NCBI GenBank assembly: GCA_030407005.1
Contig: JAUDYN010000011.1
Span: forward strand, 1,230,501-1,294,500
DNA from: Desarmillaria ectypa
Taxonomy: Eukaryota > Basidiomycota > Agaricomycetes > Agaricales > Physalacriaceae
Direction: 5' to 3'
Length of the DNA stretch: 64,000 nucleotides
In this document: one piece after another, positions 35,301 through 51,899 of the stretch
How the letters are laid out: each line of letters opens with the position of its first letter
How positions within the stretch are numbered: position 1 is the stretch's first letter
Position numbers and translations under genes: made by a program
Notes under the pieces: model-generated
The model's database searches: none
What the model was told of the DNA's origin: nothing
Seen by the model: the letters and a program-made list of their open reading frames with translations, nothing else

Positions 35301-35735
35301 AGTCACACCAACTTATGGCTGATTCTTCCAGACTCTCTTCTCATAGTGCTATTCAGTTAATATTTGCATTGGCAGTCTCTATAAAGTGTGATATGTCAGT
35401 TCACCTAGCAGTTAGCTCAGATTGATTTTTTTGCACACTTTGAGCATGACTGCTTTAGGTGTTTGGTTGACTTCCATACAATGCATATATGTTTGTAGTG
35501 ACAGGTGTCTGAGTTACATCTCCCAGCATTCCAATTCTTATAGATCTCCTCATCATTGTGTCAACACTTTCTCAGACTACTCTCTTCAGTGCCTGCAGAT
35601 GGTGTTGCATAGGCAGTGCCTCCAGTCTTGAGATGTTAGAATTTCTTGTTAGATCTATGGTCCACATGATCTGCAGACACACATAGTCCTAAGGGCTGTC
35701 TCATATTCAGACAATCATCCTAAGGTTATGTTTAT

Positions 35736-36151
35736 TGTTACAATTTTTCTGTTATCTTATCTTATCTGAGTCATATCTATGACTCATCCATCTAATCAAC
35801 CATTGTTTCCAACTCATATTAACACACTCACCGACCACTATCCTTATTCTCATCAACTATCACCTCAGACTCCTTCTATTGGATCATGATCCTTCTGGAC
35901 CATTCTACTTTGACACTGTTTCAGCATAGACTGAATCATTTCATCTAAATATAACTGCCATACTTACAGTATATAAGTAGAGTAAAACCCACTGTTGTAC
36001 TCTATCTTTTGACTAAATTACACTCATATACCTCTTACTCACATACACTAAAGACTGAGCTTAAACCTCTAACTGGGTGATTGTTCGAACACGTAACAGC
36101 CCAAGAGATCAGCTTATGTCCCAAGTCACATGCTTAAGCAGGGCTGTAACA
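35736..36151 (+). repeat. LTR of dead gypsy relative, copy 1 (416 bp)
   Basis: It starts TGTTACAATTTTTC and ends GGGCTGTAACA, and is alignable along its whole length with the 424-bp LTR at 40,522 but much diverged and CpG-poor. It has TATATAAGTAG near 35,972. Its ATCTTTTGACTAA (36,004-36,016) is complementary to the bases immediately after the LTR (36,152-36,164), the same self-priming layout as the young element. Confidence 0.85.
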
Positions 36152-36209
36152 TTAGTCAAAAGATTCACTCCTACTTCTAAATGCTAGCTGTAAAAAAGCA
36201 TTCTCTTAT

Positions 36210-37746
36210 GACCAATGAAGAGAACCCACAAAACCCCAGAACCATCTCTCTTGGCATCGCAATTGGTGGTGCCATTCTTTTAACCTTTTTTATGGTCCTC
36301 AATTTATGAGGAAGAAATCTGTATCCTTCTTCACCAAAGGTGAACCTAATGACTCCAACTCTCATCCTGACTATGTTGTTCCCCAGAGACTATCCCCTGC
36401 CCGATTGGGTGAATGAGAGGCGATACCTCTCAGTCATTCCTGAGCATAATTTGCCATTGCCTCCTCCTCCAAGGAGTCAATTAATGAGAGAACCTCTGCC
36501 ACCGGTCCCTCCTGGAACCCAATTGAGGAGGCCCTGACTGCAGGGCTGTCCTCTGTCAATGAGCACAATGCTCAGGCCATCTTTCTCCATTACAGAATGG
36601 AATGACCCACCCCCTCCATCACCAAGGAATATGCGTGGCACATATGGGCTGAGGAGAATGTCCTGCCCCCCTACCCTAGGCCCCCACACCCCTGCCCCAT
36701 CCATCCCCCTACCCCCACCCTTCTTTTGTACTCTCAGTGAATACCCCCCCAACCACAATCCTCCTCCTCCTTTGATGAGTCCTATCACAGACCCCAAAAC
36801 CCTGACAATCCTGCCATGGATTGAGACCACCTCTACGGGCCCTGGGTCTGTAGAGAAAACTGGCCCCGGGGAGGGACCAACTCCATCTCTTCTCTCCCAA
36901 TCATCAAAATCTCTGACAAGTCTGATAGGGAATTTGACGCCCCATGCCCACCCCCTCTCACTACCACCAACAGTCCCTTTAACCCAAATAGGGGGGACTA
37001 TACCTGGCCCAAACTCTCCGAGTTTGACAGGGGTCTATTTGACCCCTTCAGGTCCGCTGCCTGGGACATTCGACGTCAGAATGTGGAGGCGAGAAGTCTC
37101 TGGGATGAGCCCAGAATAAGCATGGATGAGTGGCTTGCCCATAACTGGGGAGACCCCATTCGGGGTCCTAACCCTGATGCCACACTCCATGCCTGAATAT
37201 AGGCAAACTGAGAATGTTGGTTATTCCCCGCCACAGTCAGGGATATACTACCAGGGCTTTGAGCCTGAGATGAGGATGAGCAGAGAGAGCTGAAATGCTC
37301 CCTACAACACTTATGGGTATTGGAGATCCAATGAGAGGAATAGATGGGGGCAAGGGCCCCAATACAATATGTTTACCTATGACACAGGATACTATGGCAG
37401 GCTGGGATATCACCAGCCCCAATATAAAACAATTCCAGATTATCCCCCAGACACTCCAGTTGCAAGACCAAGACCCCTGCCTGACTCACTGCCATACAGT
37501 CAGGCATAACAACAAGGCTACCATCTCTACCAGGGTGGCAGTCTTCTCTTTGCAGGCATGGGAGAAGATATAGAAGCTGAAAATATCCCTGCAGAAACCA
37601 CCACTGCAGGGGCATCAAGAATTCTAGCAATGGCAGAAGAAATTTGGCAGCAGACAAAAACTGCACTGGCTGAAAAGGAGAAGTGCATCATGGAGATGCG
37701 TGAAGAGCTCAAAAGGGAGGAGTCTGCCATGAGGATGATGGCGGTA
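36210..37746 (+). pseudogene. Dead gypsy relative copy 1: ORF0 and gag remnant
   Basis: Homologous to 41,005-42,610 of the young element. Frame A starts MTNEENPQNPRT and keeps the membrane segment (SLGIAIGGAILL), and further on DYTWPKLSEFDRGLF and SLWDEPRISMDEWL. Frame B starts MLFPRDYPLPDW and keeps EWNDPPPP, YNMFTYDTGYYG and PDYPPDTPVA. Both frames are thus recognisable over the same DNA. It is broken by indels and cut at 37,746 by repeat unit X. Confidence 0.75.
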
Positions 37747-39094
37747 ATGTACTTGGTAACTGCAAGTGACAAAAGAATTAGGGAATGGCAATGAACACCA
37801 ATCACACTAAACCTCTTACTACTCTACACTTAATCACCAATATTGAATTTGGGTGGTTTCAAGTATGATGGAAGCACTCTGCAGACTTCAATAATCAAGT
37901 ACAATTGTCTTAAAGACATTTTATTCGTTACTAGTGAGTTTATACAAAGTACTACTCATACTAGTGGGGTGGGTAAGACACAATTGGATAAGAGTGACTT
38001 GGTTTGAGCTACTGCGCTTGTTCTGACTGAAACTGCTTCAGACTGGTGGCACTCTTGGCCCTATACTGCTTCCTACAAGTGATAAACACTTGACCAGTCG
38101 CACTCTTGGCTGACTAGTGGCACTCTTGGCCTAAGAATAAACTATAACTCTGAGAAATTTGCTTGAACTAACTTCAAAACACTCCGGACCTTTGCAGGAC
38201 ACAACAGTGACTCTAATGGACTTCAATTCAATGCAATTCTATAGGTGACTTAGCAACTATTAATCACTTCATCGAGGTTAAGCATAAAAGCCTTTAATTG
38301 GGGACACCAGTTACTACCAGTGAGGGCTCAACTGCAGGGATGGCTTGCCTGGTCTGCACGAGCACCCATCCCACTACTTATATACTACTGAGGCAGAACT
38401 ATAAATATCATCTGGGTATAGGGTATATTGGTAAGGATTTCTTGGCTAGTCACGAATAATGGTGAATAATCACACAATAGTTGGTCTAGTCTGTTTTCTT
38501 TTCAAATATTCAGTCTAGAGACTCCACAGTTGGTCTTTCCCTTGGCCCAACTACCTGCCCTAGTAATGTGGTTATATAAATATCTGGATATTGGTACCTG
38601 TAATAGCTATCCAATCATGATCGAGGGTGCAGTCTGGCTCCACTAGCATCGATTATAAGAGATCTATATTGAAATAGTCGGATCTGGGCTCAAGATTAAT
38701 CCATTCCTAATTTATTTCTAAGTCCTGTTTCAAGATTGCCATGTGACTAGTTATCCTGACTTAGGCATTTATGCCCAGTCTGGGCTGCTAGTGACAGAAC
38801 TTCATGAGATCTGTGTACTCTGCTCCTGGTTTTTGTATGCTAGTAGCATCCTTCATTTGCTAGTGGCTGTATTTCACTTAGTCCTGCTAGCATTTGAGTT
38901 ACTAGTCTGGCCGGCTGGTAGATTTAACCCACTAATGGTGTTGCATCTAAGTCCTGGCTCTACCAGTTGCTTACTGCTTTTAACTATCAGCTTGAAGCCT
39001 CAGCTATAATCCTCTATGTATCACTAGTATAGGATAAATGTGCAATAGTATTGTTACAAAATCGTAAAATCTGAGTATGAATGCATAGATGGCA
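37747..39094 (+). repeat. Repeat unit X, left copy (1.35 kb)
   Basis: It is the reverse complement of 39,758-40,521 joined to 49,040-49,608 (coordinates sum to 78,852-78,853 in the inner part), with scattered differences. X starts ATGTACTTGG and ends GATGGCAT. It contains a thrice-repeated TGGCACTCTTGGC-type motif (about 38,047-38,140) and TATATAAATATC near 38,572. It may be the LTR of another element or a DNA element; the termini do not settle it. An 88-codon frame (38,743-39,009) is present in both copies, but nothing suggests it is a real protein. Confidence 0.75.
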
Positions 39095-39757: not shown

Positions 39758-40521
39758 ATGTCATCTACACATTCACACCTAGATTTTGCGATTTTGTAAC
39801 AATACTATTGCACATCTATCCTATACTAGTGATACATAGAGGACTATAGCTGAGGCTTCAAGCTGATAGTTAAAAGCAGTAAGTAACTGGTAGAGCCAGG
39901 ACTTAGATGCAACACCATTAGTGGGTTAAATCTACCAGCCGGCCAGACTAGTAACTCAAATGCTAGCAGGACTAAGTGAAATACAGCCACTAGCAAATGA
40001 AGGATGCTACTAGCATACAAAAACCAGGAGCAGAGTACACAGATCTCATGAAGTTCTGTCACTAGCAGCCCAGACTGGGCATAAATGCCTAAGTCAGGAT
40101 AACTAGTCACATGGCAATCTTGAAACAGGACTTAGAAATAAATTAGGAATGGATTAACCTTGAGCCCAGATCTGACTATTTCAATATAGATCTCTTATAA
40201 TTGATGCTAGTGGAGCCAGACTGCACCCTCGATCATGATTGGATACCTATTACAGGTACCAATATCTGGATATTTATATAACCACATTACTAGGGCAGGT
40301 AGTTGGGCCAAGGGTGTGGAAAGACCAACTGTGGAGTCTCTAGACTGAATATTTGAAAAGAAAACAGACTAGACCAACTATTGTGTGATTATTCACCATT
40401 ATTCGTGACTAGCCAAGAAATCCTTACCAATATACCCTATACCCAGATGATATTTATAGTTCTGCCTTAGTAGTATATAAGTAATGGGATGAGTGCTCGT
40501 GCAGACCAGGCAAGCTATCTC
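39758..40521 (-). repeat. Repeat unit X, right copy, first part
   Basis: Inverted copy of 38,331-39,094. It is interrupted at 40,521 by the young gypsy element and resumes at 49,040. The join in the uninterrupted left copy reads through GCAAGCCATCCCTGCAG, which defines the empty target site. Confidence 0.85.
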
Positions 40522-40755
40522 TGTTACGATTTTTCCCTTATCTTATCTTATCCGAGTCATATCCATAACTCATCCATCTAATCTAGTCCAGAAACCGACT
40601 CGTATCCAGATATTCGCCGACGACCACCCTCTTTCTCACCATCTGTCACCCTAGACGATTACCATTGGTTCTATGATCCTCCTGGATCGTCCTACTTCGA
40701 CACCGTTTGTGCATGGACCGTAGCGTTTCATCTAAATATAACGCCGTAGGAATAC

Positions 40756-40763
40756 TATATAAA
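40756..40763 (+). promoter_or_regulatory. TATA box of the gypsy LTR
   Basis: TATATAAA in the 5' LTR, about 30 bp upstream of the self-primer. The same promoter is repeated in the 3' LTR near 48,846-48,853, where it could drive outward transcription into repeat X. Confidence 0.65.
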
Positions 40764-40790
40764 CAGAGTATATTAGACCATTGTACTCTA

Positions 40791-40802
40791 TCTCTTGTTT
40801 TA
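40791..40802 (+). promoter_or_regulatory. Self-primer sequence (predicted RNA 5' end)
   Basis: TCTCTTGTTTTA is perfectly complementary to TAAAACAAGAGA immediately after the LTR (40,946-40,957). In Tf1/sushi-type elements the folded 5' end of the RNA itself primes minus-strand DNA. No tRNA primer site is seen. Confidence 0.7.
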
Positions 40803-40945
40803 ATTAACACTATAAACTCCTTATTCGCACTACACTAAAGACTATTAGCGTAGTTCTCTCGTTTGGGTGATCGTTCGAACGCGTAATGGCCCAGAGAGGA
40901 TCAGCTGACTGGCCCCAAGTCACGTGCCCAAGGCAGTGCCTAACA

Positions 40946-40957
40946 TAAAACAAGAGA
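40946..40957 (+). promoter_or_regulatory. Primer binding site for self-priming
   Basis: TAAAACAAGAGA directly abuts the 5' LTR and pairs over 12 bp with 40,791-40,802. The matching pair is preserved with different bases in the dead copy at 36,004-36,016 and 36,152-36,164. Confidence 0.7.
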
Positions 40958-41004
40958 TTTCTAACCAACTTTTCTTCTATTACGCTAGCCGTATAGAAGA
41001 ACTC

Positions 41005-42219
41005 ATGTCCGGAGAAGACAGAAACTCTCAAGAACCCCGAACCGTTTCCCTCGGCGTCGCCATCGGCGGTGCCATACTATTATCTTTCTTTATGGTCCTC
41101 GCCGTACTCATCTACGAGGAAGAACTCTGGGCCTTGCTAAGAAGGCAACCCCGGAGACCAGAACCAGATCCCCGCCCCGTCCCAGCCGCCACCCATGACC
41201 TTCCCAGGGGGATACCCCCCACAAGACTGGGAGAACGAGAGGAGCTTCCACTCGTTCGTCCCCGGGCCCGATTCATTATCGGGCCCTCCTCCTCCTCCGA
41301 GGAGAGCACTAATTCGCGGCCCCCGTCTCCGGGGATCGCAGAACTTCAGGCTCAGATTGCCCGAAATGCTCTCGCCTACAATGCGAGGGCCCTCCTCCTC
41401 CGGAGCCAGTTGGAACGACCCACCGTTGCAATGGAGCAACCAACAATCGGTCCCGAGGAGACCGAAGAACACGAGGGGGACATTTGGACTGATGGGGATG
41501 AACCCCCGCCCCCATACCCCGGTCCCCCCCCTCGCTCAAGAAACCCCGCCCCTCGCCTATCTCGGCAAAGGTCTGACTCCCCGCCGCCCAACAGCGGCAG
41601 CAACAGCAACAGCAGATCCGACTCCAGCGGATCCGACTCCGACCAACCCCGACACCCCGACGATCCCGGCATGGATCGGACCCACCCCTACGGTCCCTGG
41701 AGCCGTGAGCGGTGGCCAAGCGAGGAGGAGTTCTCTCTCTCCTCCCTCCCCGTCATCGAAATCTCCGATGACGAGTCCGACGACGGCCTCATCGGAAACC
41801 ACACCCAGGCCGCTCCCCAGGCCCCTGACGATCCCTTCAACTCCGACGGGCTCGACTACACCTGGCCAGAACTCTCCGACTACGATCAGAGACTATTCAG
41901 TCCCTACCGGACCACAGCATGGGAAATTCAATGAAGGGACGTTGAAGCCCGAGACCTCTGGGAAGAACCCAGAATGGAGATGGATGAGTGGCTCGCCCTT
42001 AACAGGGGCGACCCCATCCGAGTACCGATGGAGGGCCCTAGCAACGCCAGGGCCCTCATCGTCAACCACCGGATTCGTGCCAATCGCGACCGGTCAATCT
42101 TCGGTCCCGCCGCAGGGGATCATTTTCCAGGGTTATTACCCAGGACCCCACAGGAGCAGAGAGAGCTGGACAGAACCCTCCAGCATCTCTGGAGGTTGGA
42201 GATGGCACGAGAGGATTGA
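41005..42219 (+). pseudogene. ORF0: transmembrane, acidic/Pro-rich protein overlapping gag
   Basis: About 404 codons from ATG 41,005 with one in-frame TGA at 41,932-41,934 (relatives have an Arg codon there). Near the N-terminus is a hydrophobic helix (SLGVAIGGAILLSFFMVLAV) followed by YEEELWALLRR. Then come Pro/Ser-rich and acidic stretches (ISDDESDD) and a conserved end (DYTWPELSDYDQRLF, MDEWLALNRGDPI, LQHLWRLE). Start, membrane helix and C-terminal blocks are recognisable in both dead relatives. It shares 41,195-42,219 with gag in another frame. I know no assigned function for such an ORF in fungal gypsy elements; a membrane or assembly role is speculation. Confidence 0.65.
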
Positions 42220-43732
42220 GGAAGAAGAACCTCAATACAATACGTTAACCTACGATACAGGTTACTATGGAGGGATGGAATACCACCACCCTCAATACGA
42301 AACTTATCCGGATTACCCACCGGATACCCCGGTCGCAAGCCCACGACCACTTCCCGACTCACCCCCTCATCATAGGGCGCGTCACCAAGGATACCACCCT
42401 TACCAGGGTGGCAGTCTTCTCTTCGCAGGGGCAGGAGAAGAAATGGAAGCAGAAGGACCGCCGGCAGGAAGCGCCACCGCAGGGGCATCAAGGAATCCTG
42501 CCACGGCAGAAGAAACTCGGCAGCAGATGCGAACCGAGTTACAGGAGAAAGAGCGACGCATAGCGGAGATGCGTAGTGAGCTCGACAAGGAGGACGCCGC
42601 CCGCAAGACACTGGCAGACTATCTCCAAGTCCAAGAGCGGGAGAAGGAGCCGGAAAGAGGGAGACCGCCGGGCCCACCAAGAGGGTACCCGGGATACAGA
42701 CTGGATCGATTTTCGATCCCAAGACCTCCCCCTGGTCAGGGACCACCTGACCCAATCCCGAATCCGGTCGGGAATGCCGCTGCTGATGCCCCCTATTTGG
42801 GCATCAAGCCAACTCTCGTCAAAGTCCCCGCCCCGTTCAAAGGGGACCATGACAACATTGAACGCTTCATAGGCGATTGCATCGCCTACTTTGAAGTGTT
42901 CAGACACTATTTCCAGGTGCCGTCGCACCTGGTACTATTCGCGACATCCCACTTCGAGGGTGCCACCAAGGACTGGTGGGTCTACAAGAGACCCGAATAC
43001 TGGGTAGGCGATGCCTTTGACGGCACCGCTGCCCACTTCCGATACCCCGACTGGGCCGACTTCGTCGACCTAGTCACAAGACAATTCCGAGATCCGGTGA
43101 TCGAGGAAATCCACAAAAAGTGCATGTTCGATCTGCGCATGGGAGCACAGCCCGCCTCCCACTACTTCCAGAAGCTGGAAGAAGAAGCCAAGCTAGCGGG
43201 CCGGAGATCCGACGAAGCGGAATGGGGCGCGATGGTAAAGGCGGTGCGACTAGGAGTCCCTAGTTCGTACACTACCTTTATTTCGAATATGGGGGTGAGC
43301 ATTCCGCGCTCATACCCCGAATGGAAGGAACGCATTCTGAGAATGTATGAAGAGAGACAGCGGAAGTGGGTCTTTGACCAGACCACCAGTATGCCTCGGG
43401 ATGGCCAGAAGCAGGGCCCGCGTCCCCAACAACAACAACCCAGCGGCAAGAACACCGCTGGGGCGACGAGTTCCTCGACTCCAAAGCCAAGCGCTGGGAG
43501 TGGAGGGGCTGGTCGCGATGTTAGAACCGGTAAGTGGACAACGTACGGGGGGGCGGGAAAGCCTATGGACGTAGACCGGCAACGAGCCGAGGGGCGCTGC
43601 TTCAGGTGTGACCAAAAGGGTCACCTGAGCAGGGATTGCCCTACAAGAAAAGAGAAGAACATAGTGAGATATGTGGGGCCCACTGACGCAGTGGTGCCAA
43701 GCACCTCCAAGGTTGAGGAGGTAAAAGAGTAG
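41195..43732 (+). CDS. Gag polyprotein
   Basis: 845 codons from ATG 41,195 to TAG 43,730-43,732. The N-terminal ~340 residues are Pro/Ser/Thr-rich and overlap ORF0. Then come a Tyr-rich segment, a coiled coil (ETRQQMRTELQEKERRIAEM), a retrotransposon gag domain (about residues 540-735; FKGDHDNIERFIGDCIAYF, ATKDWWVYK), a basic Gln-rich stretch, and a CCHC zinc knuckle CFRCDQKGHLSRDCP near the C-terminus for nucleic-acid binding. Start and opening residues (FPxxYPxxxW) are conserved in the dead copies; one has ATA for ATG. The protein would form the virus-like particle. Pol follows in the -1 frame relative to gag. Confidence 0.85.
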   Translation: MTFPGGYPPQDWENERSFHSFVPGPDSLSGPPPPPRRALIRGPRLRGSQNFRLRLPEMLSPTMRGPSSSGASWNDPPLQWSNQQSVPRRPKNTRGTFGLMGMNPRPHTPVPPLAQETPPLAYLGKGLTPRRPTAAATATADPTPADPTPTNPDTPTIPAWIGPTPTVPGAVSGGQARRSSLSPPSPSSKSPMTSPTTASSETTPRPLPRPLTIPSTPTGSTTPGQNSPTTIRDYSVPTGPQHGKFNEGTLKPETSGKNPEWRWMSGSPLTGATPSEYRWRALATPGPSSSTTGFVPIATGQSSVPPQGIIFQGYYPGPHRSRESWTEPSSISGGWRWHERIEEEEPQYNTLTYDTGYYGGMEYHHPQYETYPDYPPDTPVASPRPLPDSPPHHRARHQGYHPYQGGSLLFAGAGEEMEAEGPPAGSATAGASRNPATAEETRQQMRTELQEKERRIAEMRSELDKEDAARKTLADYLQVQEREKEPERGRPPGPPRGYPGYRLDRFSIPRPPPGQGPPDPIPNPVGNAAADAPYLGIKPTLVKVPAPFKGDHDNIERFIGDCIAYFEVFRHYFQVPSHLVLFATSHFEGATKDWWVYKRPEYWVGDAFDGTAAHFRYPDWADFVDLVTRQFRDPVIEEIHKKCMFDLRMGAQPASHYFQKLEEEAKLAGRRSDEAEWGAMVKAVRLGVPSSYTTFISNMGVSIPRSYPEWKERILRMYEERQRKWVFDQTTSMPRDGQKQGPRPQQQQPSGKNTAGATSSSTPKPSAGSGGAGRDVRTGKWTTYGGAGKPMDVDRQRAEGRCFRCDQKGHLSRDCPTRKEKNIVRYVGPTDAVVPSTSKVEEVKE

Positions 43733-43764
43733 GGCGTCAAGGGTTCGATTCCCCTTGCACGCCC
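43732..43764 (+). other. T-arm-like RNA hairpin between gag and pol
   Basis: Starting on the last base of the gag stop codon: GGGCGT pairs with ACGCCC (43,759-43,764), and inside it CAAGGG pairs with CCCTTG around the loop TTCGATTC. This reproduces a tRNA acceptor/T-arm minihelix, including the B-box-like GGTTCGATTCC. The dead copy keeps the fold with two compensated base-pair changes. A role in pol translation is inference. Confidence 0.6.
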
Positions 43765-44766
43765 AAGTCTCAAGGTGTGTCCTCGGTTTCCGCGGGTCGG
43801 ACTAAATATTATGAAAACAGAAAAATATCTACGAACAATATATCTATGACTTCACCAAAGCCGAAGACAAAAAAGAAAGAATCAACAAAGACAAACAGGT
43901 ATGTCATACTGCTAGAAGACGCTGACACCAGTATCTGTAGTGACCAATCCCGAACCTCCGACGAACTGGAGCGGGACTTGCCAAATGGTGTTGGCGCCGC
44001 AACAAAGTCCAAAGAGCAGTGCTCACCGGATACGCCGCTGAGCGCTCAGCGACGAGCAGGGACCAGTAGGCAGGACTCCTCTGGGACTTCCAGAAGTCCG
44101 ACCGTCCCAGTACCCGCTTCGAGCAGCGGGGCAAGCTCACCAGTTCTGCCAGGGTCGGCGGAGGATCAGAACAGTGCCTCTCACCAAGGCCAGGCCTTAC
44201 CCGGACGAACCGGTCCGGGGAGTGGAAAACTTGACGAAGCTGAGTACCAAACCGGGCCGGCAAGTTGCAGGGTTGACAACCATGCGAAGGTCGCCTTAGG
44301 CACTAGCTGGGAGTCAATGACCAAGGAATTTCAAACTCCGTCACGAGTGGTGCCGGCCGAGGAAAAGGGACAGGATCCCGCTAGCGCCCAGGCAGTAAAA
44401 AGGGGGCATTTCAGCAGAACTACCGTCGTTGAAGTACCCGACGAAGAAGATGATACAGCATTCAGAATATGGCAAGATAAACAATCCAAAGCCAGTACTC
44501 CGATATGCAGAACACCGGAAAAACAAACATTCGACCTTCCGAACGTACAGGGAAGTGTCGAAACCAATACCGATCTTAACAAGGGGGTATCAATTGCTTT
44601 CGAATGTATGGGAAAGCTGAAAAAGTCTTCTGAATGCACAGGGAAGCAAGACGAATTCCAATGGTTTAAACCATTCGGAATTGACTGGACAATGCGCGCT
44701 ATACGCAACTCCAAGGATTTGGCTAATGCCAAAGCGGTTCTCTCCATTTGGGTACACCCCAAATGA
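43765..44766 (+). pseudogene. Pol N-terminal region (pre-protease)
   Basis: The pol frame is open from 43,717 and first stops at TGA 44,764-44,766. No ATG is present near its 5' end: the codon aligned with the ATG of the dead copy is AAG at 43,765. The product is Lys/Ser/Glu-rich with no known fold; the opening SVSAGRTKYY and the RYVILLEDADT block are shared with the dead copy. It continues in the same frame into protease. Confidence 0.65.
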
Positions 44767-46812
44767 CTTGGAGAAATCAACGACGAGCTTATCCGAAGCT
44801 TACAAACAGAAGAAAGTACGGCCCGGGAACAACTCTACGAATTGCACGAACCCATTCGTTATATTCGAGGCACCAAGAGTTCCGGTCAGGACTTCTTGGT
44901 AGACATCCAACTTTCCCCATGTACCGGGAAAAAAGTACTGACAACCCGAGCGTTGTTGGATAGCGGCTGCACGGGCAGCTCTATCAACCGAACGTACGTC
45001 CAACAACACCAGTTGGACACCAGGAAGGCCGCAGCCCCTATACCGGTCTATAATGCCGATGGAACGCGCAACAAAGCAGGAGATGTTACCGAATTTGTAG
45101 AATTGCGAATGACAATTGGAGGACATAGTGAACGCATTGACCTCGCAGTCACCGACTTAGGTTCCAAAACTGTATATTTGGGACACGACTGGCTTAAACG
45201 CCACAACCCTTTTGTCAACTGGAAGGCAGGAACCTTGACATTTGGACGATGTCATTGTGTTCAGAACCACTTTACTCTGCCAGACGCAGATGAAGAAGAC
45301 CGATGGGACGAAGAGCTCGAAGAGGGAGAAAGTATTCTTGCCGTCAATATGCAAGAAGAAATCATCCTTCGAGCCGTCCATCACGCGAATGAGTTAGCAG
45401 CTGCAGCTAACGCTGAGAAACCAAAGCAGACGTTTGAGGAACTCATACCTCCTCAGTATCAAAGCTTTAGAGATTTATTCTCTAAAGAAAGCTTTGATGA
45501 ATTACCAGAACGAAGAACCTGGGATCACGCCATCGAGCTAATCCCCAACGCAAAATCTACCTTAGATTGCAAAGTGTACCCGCTCAATCGCAATGAGCAG
45601 GAACAATTGGACAAATTCTTAGATGAGAATTTAGACTCAGGACGCATTCGTCCATCGAAATCCCCATTCGCCTCTCCTTTCTTCTTTGTCAAGAAAAAAA
45701 ATGGCTCTCTACGACCAGTTCAGGATTATCGAAAACTGAATGAAATGACGATAAAGAATCGTTATCCCCTCCCACTCATCTCTGAGCTTATCGACAAGTT
45801 ACGAGGAGCCAAATACTTCTCCAAGCTGGATGTACGATGGGGTTACAACAATGTCCGGATTCGAGACGGAGATGAAGAGAAAGCCGCGTTCAGAACTAAT
45901 CGAGGGCTCTTTGAACCCACGGTAATGTTCTTCGGGCTCACCAATTCACCAGCCACCTTCCAGTGGATGATGAACGACATATTCAAGGATTTGATCGCCG
46001 GAGGAAAGGTCACCATTTACCTCGATGATATACTTATCTTCACAAAATCCTTGACAGAACACCGGAACATAGTACGACAAGTACTCCAGCGACTTCGAGA
46101 AAACAAGTTATTCCTCAAAGCCGAGAAATGCGAGTTTGAAGTACTCGAGACGGAATACCTTGGGGTTATCATAAGCGAAGATGCCATTCGCATGGACCCA
46201 ATCAAAATAGCAGGAATAGCAGAATGGCCGACCCCAACAAAAAAGAAAGAACTACAATCCTTCCTAGGATTCACGAATTTCTACCGAAAATTCATCAAAG
46301 ACTATTCCAAGATAGTCCGTCCCCTCACCCAGTTAACTGGAAAGGTAGACTGGACCTGGGGATCAGAACAAGAACAGGCGTTTGATCAAATCAAGAAGCT
46401 GATGACGACAAACGTAATCTTAACGATTCCTTCAGACGATGGAAAGTTCCGAGTAGAAGCAGATGCGAGTGACGGAGCCATTGGCGCTGTACTCAGCCAA
46501 GAAAAAGAAGGCAAATGGAGACCCGTCGCTTTCATGTCCAAAGCGCTCACCGCCACCAAGCGCAACTATGAGATCTACGACAAAGAATTACTAGCCATCA
46601 TGCTAGCGCTAGAAGAATGGCGTCATTATCTCATGGGCGCCAAAGAAATCATCGAGATCTGGACCGACCACCAGAATCTCCAGTACTTCCGAAAACCCCA
46701 GAAGTTGAATCGTCGACAAGCACGATGGGTCACCGAACTAGCGGAATACCACTTTATCCTTCAGCATAAAGCCAGAACTGCTAACCAGAAGGCTGATCTT
46801 CTCAGTAGATGA
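44767..46812 (+). pseudogene. Pol: protease, reverse transcriptase, RNase H
   Basis: Same frame as the preceding segment. The aspartic protease has LLDSGCTGSS (near 44,955). The RT has FVKKKNGSLRPVQDYRKLN, SKLDVRWGYNNVRI and the catalytic YLDDILIF (near 46,020). RNase H has EADASDGAIGAVL and YDKELLAIMLALEEW. The frame stops at TGA 46,810-46,812 but the homology continues without shift. Catalytic Asp residues are intact, so inactivation is by stop codons alone. Confidence 0.9.
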
Positions 46813-48531
46813 GATGATCATGATCAGGGAAAAGAAGACAATAAAGACATTGTCGTTCTATCCCCGGAACACTTCCGTGCCCTGATAATACCAACCACGG
46901 AAGAGAGAATCACGCGCATAAGAGACGCAACAAGACAGAAGGAACAGTGGGACCAGGGAATTGAAAAATCCCTCAATCATGAAAGAGGAATCACGCAGGA
47001 GAACGAAATCCTGTGGTATGACGGATGAGTCTATGTCCCCAACGACTCAATGCTACGCGGTGAGATCATTGCGCAATTCCATGATCACATCACCGCTGGA
47101 CACCCCGGAATCGCCAAAACCAAAGAGCTCATACTCCGTGAGTATTGGTGGCCGAAAATGAAGAAGGACGTAGAATCTTACATCAAGGGATGTGAGACTT
47201 GTCAAAGGATGAAGAGTGACACGCAGGCCAAGGCTGCCCCTCTTCACCCCAACACAATTCCTGATATGCCATGGACACATATCTCCGTCGATATGATCAC
47301 CGGACTCCCGGAGTCAGATGGATTTGACGCTCTACTAGTCATCGTAGACTGTTTTTCAAAAAATATCCTCTTGTTTCCATGCAATGAGGAATTATCAGCA
47401 GAAGGATGGGCATTAATACTTCGCAATCAAGTATACGCGAAGCATGGAATGCCGCAAGTGGTTATCTCTGACAGAGGACCTCAATTCATTTCAGCATTCA
47501 TGAAAGAACTATATCGAATGCTGAATATCACTCAAAACGCGTCCACGGCATATCATCCGCAGACAGACGGACAGACAGAGAGAGTCAACCAGGAGGTTGA
47601 AAAATACCTTCATATCTTTGTCAACCATAGACAGACCGACTGGGTAGCATGGCTACCACTCGCCGAATTTGCCCACAACAACCGAGTTCATTCGGCCACG
47701 GGCAAAAGTCCTTTCATGGTCCTATACGGACGAAATCCCCGACTCATCCCTGAGTCAATACAGAAAACCGGTTTTGTAAACCCTACAGCCGTTAACTTTA
47801 CAGAAACTATGGCCAAGGTCCATAAGGAGGTTCACGAAGCATTGGAAAAAGCGGCAATGCAAATGAAGATGCAATATGACAAAAAGAAGCAGACTCAACG
47901 AGAGTACCGAATCGGAGATAAGGTATGGCTTGATACCGCCAACCTTCACCTTCCACGACCAAAGAAAAAGCTTGACGACAAACGAACAGGACCATTCGAA
48001 ATCGTTGAAAAGTCGGGAGCGACAGCATACAAGCTGAAACTACCACCCCACTGGAAAATCCATCCCCGGTTCAATGAAAAATTGTTGACTCCATATGTTG
48101 CACCGTCATTTGCAAATCAAGAACAACCGCCTCCACCTCCCCCGGATCTCATAGACGGTCAAGAAGAGTACGAAATCGAAGAAGTCTTGGACTCGCGCAC
48201 CAGAAAGGTACGGTCCAAACGAGGACAACCATCTAGGGAAGTCACAGACTACCTGGTCAAATGGAAAGGATGGACTCGTGAACACAATTCATGGGTTCGA
48301 GAGAATGAAATGAAGAATGCCTCGGAAGCAATCCAAGAGTATAAGGCGAACGTAAACCGCGCCGTATATGCTCCAAAAATCGCAACCAGGAAAATAGTGG
48401 TCAAAATACTGGATCACGAATATTCGGAACATGGCGACGTAGCATACCTCGCCAAAAGAACAGATGGATGCATCAAATGGATTATCAATCCAGACGAAGG
48501 GATATGGAAAAAACTGATTGATCAGTACTAG
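46813..48531 (+). pseudogene. Pol: integrase with chromodomain
   Basis: The frame continues with a further TGA at 47,026-47,028 just before VYVPNDSMLRG. The HHCC zinc finger (HDHITAGHPG ... CETCQRMK), the catalytic core (VDMITGLPESDG, VISDRGPQF, Glu in GQTERVNQE) and a GPFEIVEK module precede a chromodomain (YEIEEVLDSR, YLVKWKGWTREHNSWV; about 48,165-48,345). A further C-terminal tail ends at TAG 48,529-48,531. Chromodomains of this class bind modified histone tails and steer insertion to heterochromatin. An in-frame ATG at 47,050 could start a separate integrase. Confidence 0.9.
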
Positions 48532-48601
48532 ATCAGTCAAATCGCAACACAAAATGACACCCCTTTGGAAGAGCCTTAGCAGTCGGGACGACTGCTTTAA
48601 C

Positions 48602-48611
48602 AAGGGGGTAA
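48602..48611 (+). promoter_or_regulatory. Polypurine tract
   Basis: AAGGGGGTAA immediately precedes the 3' LTR, the usual position of the plus-strand primer. Confidence 0.6.
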
Positions 48612-49034
48612 TGTTACGATTTTTCCCTTATCTTATCTTATCCGAGTCATATCCATAACTCATCCATCTAATCTAGTCCAGAAACCGACTCGTATCCAGA
48701 TATTCGCCGACGACCACCCTCTTTCTCACCATCTGTCACCCTAGACGATTACCATTGGTTCTATGATCCTCCCGGATCGTCCTACTTCGACACCGTTTGT
48801 GCATGGACCGTAGCGTTTCATCTAAATATAACGCCGTAGGAATACTATATAAACAGAGTATATTAGACCATTGTACTCTATCTCTTGTTTTAATTAACAC
48901 TATAAACTCCTTATTCGCACTACACTAAAGACTATTAGCGTAGTTCTCTCGTTTGGGTGATCGTTCGAACGCGTAACGGCCCAGAGAGGATCAGCTGATG
49001 GTCCCAAGTCACGTGCCCAAGGCGGTGCCTAACA
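48612..49034 (+). repeat. 3' LTR of young gypsy element (423 bp)
   Basis: Nearly identical to 40,522-40,945. It keeps CpG at three places where the 5' LTR has TG or CA. Confidence 0.95.
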
Positions 49035-49608
49035 ATCCCTGCAGTTGAGCCCTCACTGGTAGTAACTGGTGTCCCCAATTAAAGGCTTTTGTGCTTAATC
49101 TTGATGAAGTGATTAATAGTCACTAAGTCACTCATAGTATTGCATTGAATTGAAGTCTCTTAGAGTCACTATTGTGTCCTACAAAGGTTCAGAGTGTTTT
49201 GAAGTTAGTTCAAGCAAAGTTCTCAGGGTTATAGTTTATTTTTAGGCCAAGAGTATGACTAGTCAAGTGTTTATCACTTGTAGGAGCAGTATAGGGCCAA
49301 GAGTGCCACCAGTCTGAAGCAGTTTCAGTTGGAACAAGTGCAGTAGCTCAAACCAAGTCACTCTTATCCAATTGTGTCTTACCCACTCCACTAGTATGAG
49401 TAGTACTTTGTATAAACTCACTAGTAATGAATAAAATGTCTTTAAGACAATTGTACTTGATTATTGAAGTCTGCAGAGTGCTTCCATCATACTTGAAACT
49501 GCCTGAATTCAATATTGGTGATTAAGTGTAGAGTAGTAAGAGGTTTAGTGTGATTGGTGTTCATTGCCATTCCCTAATTCTTTTGTCACTCGCCATTACC
49601 AAGCACAT
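49035..49608 (-). repeat. Repeat unit X, right copy, second part
   Basis: It resumes the X copy interrupted at 40,521 and is the reverse complement of about 37,747-38,335. It ends CCAAGCACAT, next to gag sequence of dead copy 2. Confidence 0.8.
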
Positions 49609-51899
49609 CACTGGTGGTCTGGTCAAAGACCCACTTGCATTGGCATTCCTCATACATTCGTGAGATCTGCTCTTTTCACTCTAGATACAAATGCGGGATA
49701 TTGATGCCCATATTTGAAATGAATGTCATATAGGAGGATGGTACTCCTAGACAAATGGCCTTCACCATTGTGCTGTGCTCATTCTCATCAGTCTGTTGGC
49801 CTGCCAATTTAGCCTCTTCTTTCAGCTTCTGGAATTAATGGGAGGTGGGCTGCATTCCCATCTGGAGGTTGAACATCTGCTTCTCATGGACTTCCTTGAT
49901 GGCAGGGTCCTGGAATTGTTGTGAGACCATGTCAATGAAGTTGTCCCAAGTGGGATATCAGAAATGGGCAGCGGTTCCATTGTAGGAATCACCCACCTAG
50001 AATTCAGGTCTCTTGTAGACCCACCAGTCCTTGGTGGCCCCTTCAAAATGAGAGGTCATGAATAAAACCAAGTGTGATGGCACCTGGAAGTAGTGTCAGA
50101 ACACTTTGAAGTAGGCAATGCAATCACCCATGAAGCATTCAATGTCATCATGATCCTCTTTGAATGGAAGGGGAGTTTTGACAAGGATGGGTTTTATGCT
50201 CAAATATGGGGCATCATCAGGTGCATTCCTGACAGGATTAGGAATGGGATCAGGAGGACCTCTACTAGGGGGCAGTCTTGGAATCAAGAATCAATCTGGC
50301 CTTGGACCCAGGTAGCCTCTTGGCAGTTCCGTGGGTCTTCCTCTGTCAGGTTCTTTCCCTTTGTTGTTGTTGCAAAGATAGTCTGTCATTCTCTTTTTAG
50401 CAGATTCCTCCCTTGTGAGCTCTTTATGCATCTCCATGATGCATTTCTCCTTTTTGGCTAATGTGGTTTTTGTCACTTGTCGAAGTTCTGCCATTGTTGC
50501 TGTGGTTCTTGATGGCCCTGCAGGGTCCTCTTCAGCTTCCATTTCTTCTCCTGCATCTGTGAAGAGAAGACTGCCACCCTGATAGGAGTGGTAGCTGGGT
50601 TGTCTTGCCTGATGATAGGGTGGGGAGTCAGATAGAGGTCATGGATTTGCGACCAGGGTGTTAGGGGGATAATCAGGATGATTTATGTATTGGGGCTGAG
50701 AGTAGCCCAGCCCATCGTAGTATCCATACCCATATCTAGCTGCTTCAAATGTTAATATTGGGTTCATTCTCCTCCCTTCTGGTGAGCTCCAATTGCCATA
50801 GCTATTGAAGGGTGTGACCCAGCTTCCATTGTTCCTGCATCATCCTTGGATGTAGTCCTGGTACCATATTGCTGATGGAAGGGTGATAAAGTTCCTGGTT
50901 CCTGTTGGTGTGAATTGGGGCCCAAATTGTGGCATTAGAGTTCAGTCCCCATATTGGTTCTCCCCTGTTAAGGGTGAGCCACTCATCCATGTTGGGATGA
51001 TGCTTGGGCCAGGCTATTTTGGCTTCAATGTCTGCTCACCTGAGGTCCCAGGTGATAGATGTAATTGGACCAAGGATTTCTTGGTCAATGGCTGCAAGGG
51101 CAGGCCAAGTTTGGTTTGTCCCATCAGGGTTGAAGAGACTGTTGAGAGTGAGGAGGATGTTGGGAAGTGGGATAGACTTGGCCTCAGAGTTTGAGCCCCC
51201 TTCAGAGTCCAAAGAGAGCTCAATGATGGGGAGTAAGGATGAGGAGTCTGGGTTCCCTCTTGGCTAAGGGTCTCTTCCTTGAGCCCAGGATCTGTAAGGG
51301 TGGTTTCAATTTATGTTGGGATTGTTGATGTGTAAGGCCCTGAAGTAGGGCCGAGGAGAGAGGGAGCAGGAGTGGGGTGGAATTCTCCAGTTGTGGGGTC
51401 AGAGGGCAGGGGCATGGGGATGAGGGGGAAGAGAGTATGGGGGCAGGGGGTTGTCATTCTGAGCCTGAATGTCCCATGCATATTCCTGGGCCTCGGTGGT
51501 GGCAGGTCATTCCAACTAGTAGATTGCAGGAATTGTTCCTGTGGAATTCTCATTGGTGTCCTCAGAGGAGGATGAAGCTGACCCAGGGGTGAGATAATGG
51601 AGCCACCTCTCTTGTTCCCAGTTGGACAGGGGATAACCTTCTGGGAATGATATGTTTGGGATAAAGGGGAGGTCAGGGTGGAAGTTGGGGATGGCAGGAT
51701 CACCTTTCTTGGCAAAGAAGGATATGTGCTTCTTCTTCATATGCTAGTACTAGAAGGGCTGTGAAAATTATAAGAATGGCAGCACTGCCGATTGCGATGC
51801 TGAGGGTGATTGTTTGTTAGTTTTCATTATTTTCAGGTATGGGTAGGTGCATCTTTTATGGCTAGCATAAAAGATGCAGGATGGTTACCTTTTGACTAA
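49609..51899 (-). pseudogene. Dead gypsy relative copy 2: ORF0 and gag remnant
   Basis: Reads on the minus strand from the LTR at 52,295. It keeps the membrane segment (TITLSIAIGSAAIL, YEEE), SFPEGYPLSNW, SWNDLPPPRPRNMHGTF, MDEWLTLNRGEPI, a coiled-coil segment and gag-domain blocks (DAPYLSIKPILVK, FMGDCIAYF), ending at the FDQTTS equivalent where X is inserted. It is CpG-poor, with multiple stops and frameshifts. The gag end resumes at 39,757. Confidence 0.8.

What the first reader, a model, noticed from the sequence alone, without database searches (positions are those of the whole stretch)
41005..42219. Transmembrane ORF0 dual-coding with gag over 1 kb
Frame 1 (ATG 41,005) encodes a membrane helix and conserved C-terminal blocks. 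Frame 2 (ATG 41,195) is gag. Both frames are recognisable at protein level in two diverged relatives: SLGIAIGGAILL and DYTWPKLSEFDRGLF for ORF0, FPRDYPLPDW and EWNDPPPP for gag. Over 1,000 nt of overlapping code and an N-terminal membrane protein upstream of gag are not features I know from fungal gypsy elements. Weak context at the first ATG (C at -3) would allow leaky scanning to gag.
Basis: partly seen in the sequence, partly recalled or inferred. Interest (0 to 1): 0.8.

Follow-up and report, generated by a model that had tools for sequence, protein, structure and literature searches.

The report
Membrane protein gene overlapping retrotransposon gag
A family of fungal jumping genes carries, ahead of and overlapping its capsid (gag) gene, a second gene in another reading frame that encodes a small membrane-anchored protein also found in honey fungus (Armillaria) elements; what the protein does is not yet known.

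Summary
The finding is real, with corrections. The window holds a Ty3/gypsy chromovirus (LTRs 40522-40945, 48612-49034). ORF0 (ATG 41005) and gag (ATG 41195, +1 frame) overlap. In this copy ORF0 ends at TGA 41932-41934, not 42219. In 17 of 30 genomic copies examined it runs 395-403 aa, about 1 kb of overlap, and 16 of those keep gag open past it. All 13 ORF0 nonsense sites fall on CGA/CGG codons, as CpG decay after insertion would give. ORF0 is under clear purifying selection in the overlap. Gag-frame constraint there is weaker: stop depletion, fourfold-site constraint and a conserved ATG support it; one variant test is not decisive. ORF0 homologues head eleven Armillaria ostoyae gag gene models (blastp E down to 1e-21); other models follow the gag frame, again +1 of ORF0, so the arrangement exists in a second genus. 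ORF0 has one N-terminal transmembrane helix, a PPxY motif, a SUMO-interaction-like motif and a conserved C-terminal block. Its ATG has a pyrimidine at -3 in 57 of 57 copies, fitting leaky scanning. Function, inferred only: membrane-anchored adaptor recruiting an Rsp5/NEDD4-type ligase. New variant of a known kind.

The parts
40522..40945 (+). 5' LTR (TG...CA)
   Evidence: 419 of 424 identical to 3' LTR
48612..49034 (+). 3' LTR
   Evidence: flanks ATCTC/ATCCC, imperfect 5-bp target duplication
40756..40763 (+). TATA box TATATAAA in the LTR
40946..40958 (+). primer-binding site TAAAACAAGAGAT, exact reverse complement of LTR 40790-40802 (self-priming of Tf1/sushi type, inferred)
   Evidence: 13-nt match found by script
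41005..41934 (+). ORF0 of this copy, 309 aa, ended by a TGA at a codon that is CGA in the reference copy L022; in most relatives the frame runs on to the site of 42217-42219
41056..41112 (+). ORF0 transmembrane helix, residues 18-36
   Evidence: hydropathy; AlphaFold2 helix 12-36, block pLDDT 81-96; hydropathy 2.4-3.2 in 29 close and 28 diverged copies
41506..41517 (+). ORF0 PPxY motif (PPPY, residues 168-171)
41752..41793 (+). ORF0 SUMO-interaction-like motif VIEISDDESDDGLI (residues 250-263)
   Evidence: motif pattern recalled, not a library match
41827..41931 (+). start of ORF0 conserved C-terminal block (DDPFNSDGLDYTWPELSDYD...); its second part lies past the stop, at 41935-42216, and is conserved in other copies
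41195..43732 (+). gag, 845 aa, +1 frame relative to ORF0; overlap with full-length ORF0 41195-42219
   Evidence: PF00098 at residues 801-816
43777..44766 (+). ORFx, linker reading frame between gag and protease (329 aa counted from a GTG)
   Evidence: several Armillaria models join it to pol
44842..46812 (+). pol: protease, reverse transcriptase, RNase H
47050..48531 (+). integrase with chromodomain (PF00385)
35733..37773 (+). decayed diverged relative: LTR, ORF0, gag N-terminus
49606..51831 (-). second decayed diverged relative: ORF0 and gag

Best explanation
A fungal Ty3/gypsy chromovirus lineage carries a real extra gene, ORF0, between the primer-binding site and gag, and the last five sixths of full-length ORF0 overlap gag in the +1 frame. 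Shown: ORF0 is under purifying selection at the protein level; the gag frame is open and modestly constrained through the overlap; both start codons are conserved; the arrangement also exists in Armillaria. Inferred: one mRNA is scanned from the LTR; the weak first ATG makes ORF0, and ribosomes that pass it start gag at the next ATG about 190 nt on. ORF0 sits in a membrane by one N-terminal helix with its long disordered tail in the cytosol; the tail's PPxY motif recruits an Rsp5/NEDD4-type ubiquitin ligase, its SUMO-interaction-like motif and C-terminal block bind a modified partner (Gag particle or host protein), so ORF0 acts as a membrane-anchored adaptor for particle placement, release or removal of a restricting protein. 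I put about 0.95 on ORF0 being a coding gene, 0.8 on gag being translated through the overlap, 0.9 on a membrane helix, 0.55 on leaky scanning and 0.3 on the adaptor function.
For: ORF0 selection. All 13 ORF0 nonsense sites lie on codons that are CGA (10) or CGG (3) in L022. Copy L020, whose two LTRs are identical over 425 bases, has an intact 400-aa ORF0. Gag frame in the overlap. Armillaria ostoyae: ORF0 heads 11 gene models that run on into gag (P0002, P0004, P0006, P0009, P0011, P0012, P0018, P0023, P0031, P0036, P0037); blastp E 1e-21 for P0037 and 6e-18 for P0018. Gag-frame models P0016, P0003 and P0043 fit the +1 frame of Armillaria ORF0 at 28, 26 and 27 of 30 residues against shuffled maxima of 16, 17 and 19. 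Start context: pyrimidine at -3 of ORF0 in 57 of 57; at gag -3 a purine in 27 of 28 diverged copies; no ATG between the two starts in 24 of 30 close copies. Architecture.
Against: No transcript, ribosome or protein data. The gag-frame odds ratio is not separable from placebo frames when only shared variants are used. In the last third of the overlap, against diverged copies, gag second positions have the highest transversion rate, an ORF0-dominated pattern. With the low-complexity filter on, no match to gag residues 1-293 in Armillaria appears among the rows shown; with it off, one short match, residues 211-251, to P0038 (E 3e-4 in a 605-letter set). In close copies gag's ATG also has C at -3, 27 of 29. 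Every Armillaria ORF0 is known only from gene models that fuse it to gag. ORF0 stops occur in 2 of 6 copies with intact gag. Function rests on short motifs in a proline-rich disordered chain; strict PPxY is kept in only 9 of 28 decayed copies, the rest mostly LPPY as C-to-T decay would give.
Confidence: 0.75

Rival explanations
1. ORF0 is the N-terminal part of a single ORF0-Gag protein, joined to gag by an intron or a programmed frameshift near the end of ORF0; the gag frame upstream of the join is not translated.
For: A. ostoyae gene models do join ORF0 to gag.
Against: The join points differ between models, from inside the C-terminal block (P0002) to nearly the end of ORF0 (P0037), as gene finders do when bridging two frames. 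The last third of the overlap, which such an intron would remove in some models, is where ORF0 is most constrained (odds ratio 0.11). The gag frame is nearly free of stops through the overlap and its ATG is conserved. P0043 follows the gag frame without ORF0. Splice or frameshift signals were not modelled.
Confidence: 0.15
2. Only ORF0 is coding in the overlap; gag starts downstream (for example after 42219) and the open gag frame follows from ORF0's composition plus RNA-level constraint.
For: Gag's first 290 residues are hardly conserved between genera; gag-frame odds ratio with shared variants is like placebo; ORF0-like position pattern in the last third; an open frame by composition alone has probability about 0.005 per sequence.
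Against: Stop-making changes depleted, 2 stops in 9,629 codons, conserved ATG, with purine at -3 in diverged copies, gag frame also open in Armillaria.
Confidence: 0.12
3. Only gag is coding and ORF0 is an accidental frame.
For: Gag core and zinc knuckle are ordinary.
Against: ORF0 odds ratio 0.27 in the overlap and 0.09-0.27 in the ORF0-only stretch; ORF0 matches across genera where gag's overlapping part hardly does.
Confidence: 0.01
4. ORF0 is an envelope-like membrane protein for transfer between cells.
For: Membrane helix; late-domain-like PPxY.
Against: One helix at the N-terminus followed by a disordered, probably cytosolic tail; no second hydrophobic segment above 1.6; lies upstream of gag rather than after pol.
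Confidence: 0.05

Closest known systems
Additional ORFs (aORFs) of LTR retrotransposons, including upstream aORFs in plants
   Same: Extra sense gene beside gag-pol; a review says aORFs lie upstream or downstream of gag-pol (PMC7264820, passages read)
   Different: The word 'overlap' does not occur in that paper's main text; it says most aORFs lie between pol and the 3' LTR; homology to ORF0 not tested
Murine leukaemia virus glycosylated Gag (recalled)
   Same: Membrane-anchored product encoded ahead of gag
   Different: Glyco-Gag is an in-frame extension of Gag; ORF0 is in another frame
Polerovirus ORF0/ORF1 overlap (recalled)
   Same: Two overlapping frames near the 5' end of one RNA, second start reached by leaky scanning
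   Different: Unrelated virus and proteins
Viral PPxY late domains binding NEDD4-type ligases
   Same: PPxY motif; certain retroviruses use PPxY-type late domains, ligands of NEDD4-type ligases (PMC2940739, abstract read)
   Different: There the motif sits in Gag; here in a separate membrane-anchored protein; binding untested
Tf1/sushi chromoviruses (recalled)
   Same: Chromodomain integrase and self-primed PBS are found here
   Different: ORF0 and the gag overlap are not features I know from them (recalled)

Membership tests
Ty3/gypsy (Metaviridae) chromovirus | protease-RT-RNase H followed by integrase, between LTRs | tested here: met
Ty3/gypsy (Metaviridae) chromovirus | chromodomain at the integrase C-terminus | tested here: met
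   PF00385 E 3.4e-12
Ty3/gypsy (Metaviridae) chromovirus | Gag with CCHC knuckle | tested here: met
   PF00098 E 1.7e-5; two of five Armillaria relatives scanned pass the PF03732 cut-off, three fall below it
Ty3/gypsy (Metaviridae) chromovirus | placement on an RT tree | not tested
   no tree built
Tf1/sushi self-priming group | PBS complementary to the element's own 5' RNA end | tested here: met
   13 nt exact match to the LTR just past the TATA box; RNA start not mapped
Retroviral env | gene downstream of pol with signal peptide, ectodomain and C-terminal anchor | tested here: not met
   upstream of gag, one N-terminal helix
Glyco-Gag | in-frame N-terminal extension of Gag | tested here: not met
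   gag is +1 to ORF0
Known protein domain for ORF0 | Pfam match | tested here: not met
   0 families for window ORF0 at E 0.01; in five Armillaria fusions every match up to E 1 lies in the gag part
NEDD4/Rsp5 adaptor or late-domain protein | PPxY that binds WW domains | not testable with these tools
   motif in 12 of 12 sequences scanned and 27 of 29 close copies; binding needs an experiment

The most novel reading that the evidence does not exclude
The element carries a gag-overlapping gene for a membrane-anchored ubiquitin-ligase adaptor: a late domain supplied by a separate membrane protein rather than by Gag, placing or releasing retrotransposon particles at fungal membranes without an envelope, with a SUMO-binding motif choosing the cargo.
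Probability: 0.2. Interest if true: 0.85.

Novelty: new variant of a known kind. Interest (0 to 1): 0.62.

Why it matters
Long same-strand overlaps in which both frames are kept are familiar from viruses, but I know of none over gag in a fungal LTR retrotransposon (recalled; searches listed under Tried and rejected found none). Many copies at graded divergence in one genome, plus a second genus, make the two frames' constraints measurable. If ORF0 is an adaptor at membranes, it would show an envelope-less retrotransposon manipulating ubiquitin and membrane traffic. It also warns that fungal gene models probably fuse two separate proteins here.

Tried and rejected
ORF0 as query in the 5.8-billion protein set gave nothing; its 0.55-1.75 length limit shuts out most of the fused Armillaria models, which came up through gag. 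Gag in IMG/VR: no match. Variant test restricted to variants shared by 2 or 3+ copies: not decisive for gag. Position-class rates against the decayed copies: ORF0-dominated in the last third of the overlap. Armillaria P0037 against the own genome: 74 matches (68 of 1,174 candidates scored), nearly all gag; seven rows cover part of its ORF0 stretch, best E of a row confined to it 4.5e-18; not followed. AlphaFold2: ORF0 mean pLDDT 60, P0018 39; no fold search made, confidence too low. tRNA scan: none in the window. Rfam over 40400-49200: one match far below its gathering score, rejected. Frameshift and splice sites joining ORF0 to gag were not modelled. Host species not identified. Literature searches: no listed title or abstract start describes a gag-overlapping membrane ORF in a fungal element; for 40, 50, 72, 73 and 74 only part of the hits was listed (12 of 15, 12 of 22, 10 of 14, 10 of 31, 10 of 1,043), and subscription papers are mostly not held. 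Passages read: PMC2774666, PMC12786077, PMC7264820, PMC5408684, PMC5741268 (75, hits only in its reference list); abstract: PMC2940739.

Full report
1. The element. The window lies in an unnamed 40.6-Mb genome in 32 contigs. Two LTRs, 40522-40945 and 48612-49034, match at 419 of 424 positions. Between them stand gag with a CCHC knuckle, a linker frame, protease-RT-RNase H, and integrase with chromodomain: a Ty3/gypsy chromovirus. Gag residues 430-845 find 44 proteins at E 0.001 (7,991 candidates scored): 39 named A. ostoyae, 2 A. solidipes, 2 unnamed, 1 weak Moniliophthora; the best is 50% identical over the whole query. The host is therefore probably an agaric, not identified here.

2. ORF0 as it stands. 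A DNA search of the own genome with 41005-42219 scored 40 places (of 268 candidates), 81-92% identical besides the window itself; 30 were cut out and examined, the window copy (L001) among them. ORF0 runs 395-403 codons in 17 of 30; the gag frame is open from its ATG past the end of ORF0 in 23 of 30; both hold in 16 of 30. In three of the 17 (L003, L019, L030) the stop lies three codons before the usual site. The 13 ORF0 nonsense sites are CGA (10) or CGG (3) in L022; in the overlap 19 of 23 stop instances are one C-to-T or G-to-A step from the L022 codon, as expected from CpG decay after insertion. Of six copies whose gag is intact as far as held, L012, L013 and L022 have a whole ORF0, L003 ends three codons early, and L001 (window) and L023 carry a TGA at codons 306 and 382. 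LTR pairs of six further copies are 95.3-100% identical; the one with identical LTRs, L020, has an intact 400-aa ORF0 but a stop late in gag.

3. Selection. Columns with variants shared by three or more of the 30 copies: in the ORF0-only stretch 0.19/0.11/0.40 for ORF0 positions 1/2/3; in the gag-only stretch gag position 3 has 0.32 against 0.09 and 0.05; in the overlap the three classes are 0.19/0.14/0.26, so both fast classes are damped. A logistic model of all possible single changes, with transition and CpG terms, gives in the overlap odds ratios 0.27 for ORF0 non-synonymous, 0.42 for gag non-synonymous, 0.88 for the third frame (a re-fit with a base term has codon-bootstrap ranges 0.18-0.38, 0.30-0.62, 0.64-1.3). 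With shared variants only, ORF0 stays at 0.27-0.39 but gag is 0.45-0.74, while placebo frames in the gag-only stretch reach 0.39-0.82; that version does not prove gag. Fourfold sites: ORF0 0.103 in the overlap against 0.178 outside and 0.142 at gag fourfold sites downstream (p 0.007, 0.008); gag 0.100 against 0.142 (p 0.004). In diverged copies the same contrasts are 0.296 vs 0.461 (p 1e-4), 0.296 vs 0.329 (p 0.09, not significant) and 0.251 vs 0.329 (p 8e-4). Stops per 1,000 overlap codons: close copies ORF0 2.4, gag 0.2, third 33.7; decayed copies 29.9, 8.7, 63.6. Against diverged copies the transversion rates by class in the last third of the overlap are 0.230/0.128/0.275, i.e. highest at ORF0 position 3 = gag position 2: there ORF0 dominates.

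4. Depth. A second search with the 36-kb relative gave 43 matches (40 of 362 candidates scored); 30 loci (L031-L060) were cut. In the 19 of them where one tblastn match spans nearly all of L020 ORF0 identity is 39-51%. These copies are decayed. Still, in the 28 usable ones the helix stays hydrophobic (28 of 28), the motif tyrosine is kept in 28, PPY in 24 and strict PPxY in 9 (mostly LPPY otherwise), the SIM-like core matches in 28, and the tryptophan of the C-terminal block is kept in 26; in 29 close copies the figures are 29, 28, 28, 27, 29 and 29. ORF0's ATG is kept in 29 of 29 and 27 of 28, gag's in 29 of 29 and 25 of 28, the rest ATA. The ORF0 codon overlapping gag's ATG varies (CAT, AAT, GAT, TAT) while AT stays fixed. 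A third search with the 51-kb relative listed 46 matches but no loci could be cut.

5. Armillaria. I read 40 of the 44 gag hits. Eleven A. ostoyae gene models begin with an ORF0 homologue and continue into gag (P0002, P0004, P0006, P0009, P0011, P0012, P0018, P0023, P0031, P0036, P0037); P0008 and P0028 (A. ostoyae) and P0033 (A. solidipes) hold part of it. Blastp of L022 ORF0 against the held proteins reaches E 1e-21 (P0037) and 6e-18 (P0018); window gag, filter on, aligns from residue 294 onward in the 24 rows shown. A table of which residues can be coded together shows that models following the gag frame are the +1 frame of Armillaria ORF0: P0018/P0016 28 of 30, P0004/P0003 26 of 30, P0011/P0043 27 of 30, against shuffled maxima 16, 17 and 19 (20-30 shuffles each). 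Of up to 396 pair-and-frame combinations the 25 best were printed and of 52 the 16 best; all 41 are +1. Three of those are own-genome positive controls, and several pair one genus with the other. P0043 follows the gag frame for 619 aa from MSYPTNQEQHW, comparable by eye to window gag MTFPGGYPPQDW. So both frames exist in a second genus in the same register.

6. Protein. One hydrophobic segment near the N-terminus in 12 of 12 sequences scanned (window, L020, ten Armillaria), N-flank charge 0 to -2 and C-flank 0 to +3, a weak hint at a cytosolic tail; one PPxY in 12 of 12; a SIM-like pattern in the middle of the chain in 11 of 12, the twelfth (P0011) having FILIDSDDED by eye. AlphaFold2 gives confident helices 12-36 and 111-137, a less sure one at 288-308, and disorder elsewhere; P0018 shows helices at similar places, only the first with block pLDDT above 70 in the ORF0 part. 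No Pfam family.

7. Mechanism. The first ATG has C or T at -3 in 57 of 57 copies; gag's has A or G in 27 of 28 diverged copies but C in 27 of 29 close ones. No ATG intervenes in 24 of 30 close copies. This is the layout for leaky scanning, not a proof. Function is inferred from motifs only: PPxY is a known ligand type for NEDD4-family ligases in retroviral late domains (PMC2940739, abstract). I commit to a membrane-anchored ligase adaptor at about 0.3.

8. Known or new. Upstream aORFs are reported for plant LTR retrotransposons (PMC7264820, passages), aORFs also for fungi and for rotifers (PMC12786077 and PMC5408684, passages). I found no description of a gag-overlapping membrane ORF in the listings of nine literature searches of open papers, several of them capped. 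Hence: new variant of a known kind.

Noticed in passing
window 40946-40958 and 40790-40802: The primer-binding site is an exact 13-nt reverse complement of a stretch of the element's own LTR just after the TATA box: self-priming as in Tf1/sushi elements.
   Followed up: partly
window 43732-43764: Right at the gag stop begins GGGCGTCAAGGGTTCGATTCCCCTTGCACGCCC, which looks like the T-arm and acceptor half of a tRNA at the gag-pol junction; ARAGORN calls no tRNA in the window.
   Followed up: no
window 43777-44766: The linker frame before protease also has a SIM-like stretch (TVVEVPDEEDD) with counterparts in Armillaria (VTCIEIPDEDDD, MIEVPDEEDD); seen by eye.
   Followed up: no
window 44764-44766: A TGA separates the linker frame from pol in the same frame in this copy; the Armillaria model P0010 reads straight through this region.
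   Followed up: no
window 40886: A difference between the two LTRs creates an upstream ATG with a 20-codon frame in the 5' LTR only. Among 29 close copies scanned, others have none to three upstream ATGs, mostly short frames; L006 and L014 have one in frame that extends ORF0.
   Followed up: partly
window about 37654-37900 and 49500-49610: Both decayed relatives in the window run into the same sequence near the point where their gag similarity stops, as if cut by the same insertion or rearrangement.
   Followed up: no
L008 (C23) and L009 (C18): Two copies are 99.4% identical over about 4.2 kb, one on a 26-kb contig: close relatives, a recent duplication or an assembly duplicate.
   Followed up: no
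A. ostoyae gene models P0002, P0004, P0006, P0009, P0011, P0012, P0018, P0023, P0031, P0036, P0037: These 11 annotated proteins are probably artificial fusions of ORF0 with Gag, with varying join points.
   Followed up: partly
own genome, e.g. G000:C29:713015-714466: Other gag families in the genome match the Armillaria P0037 ORF0 stretch (seven rows), so more distant ORF0 families exist here.
   Followed up: no
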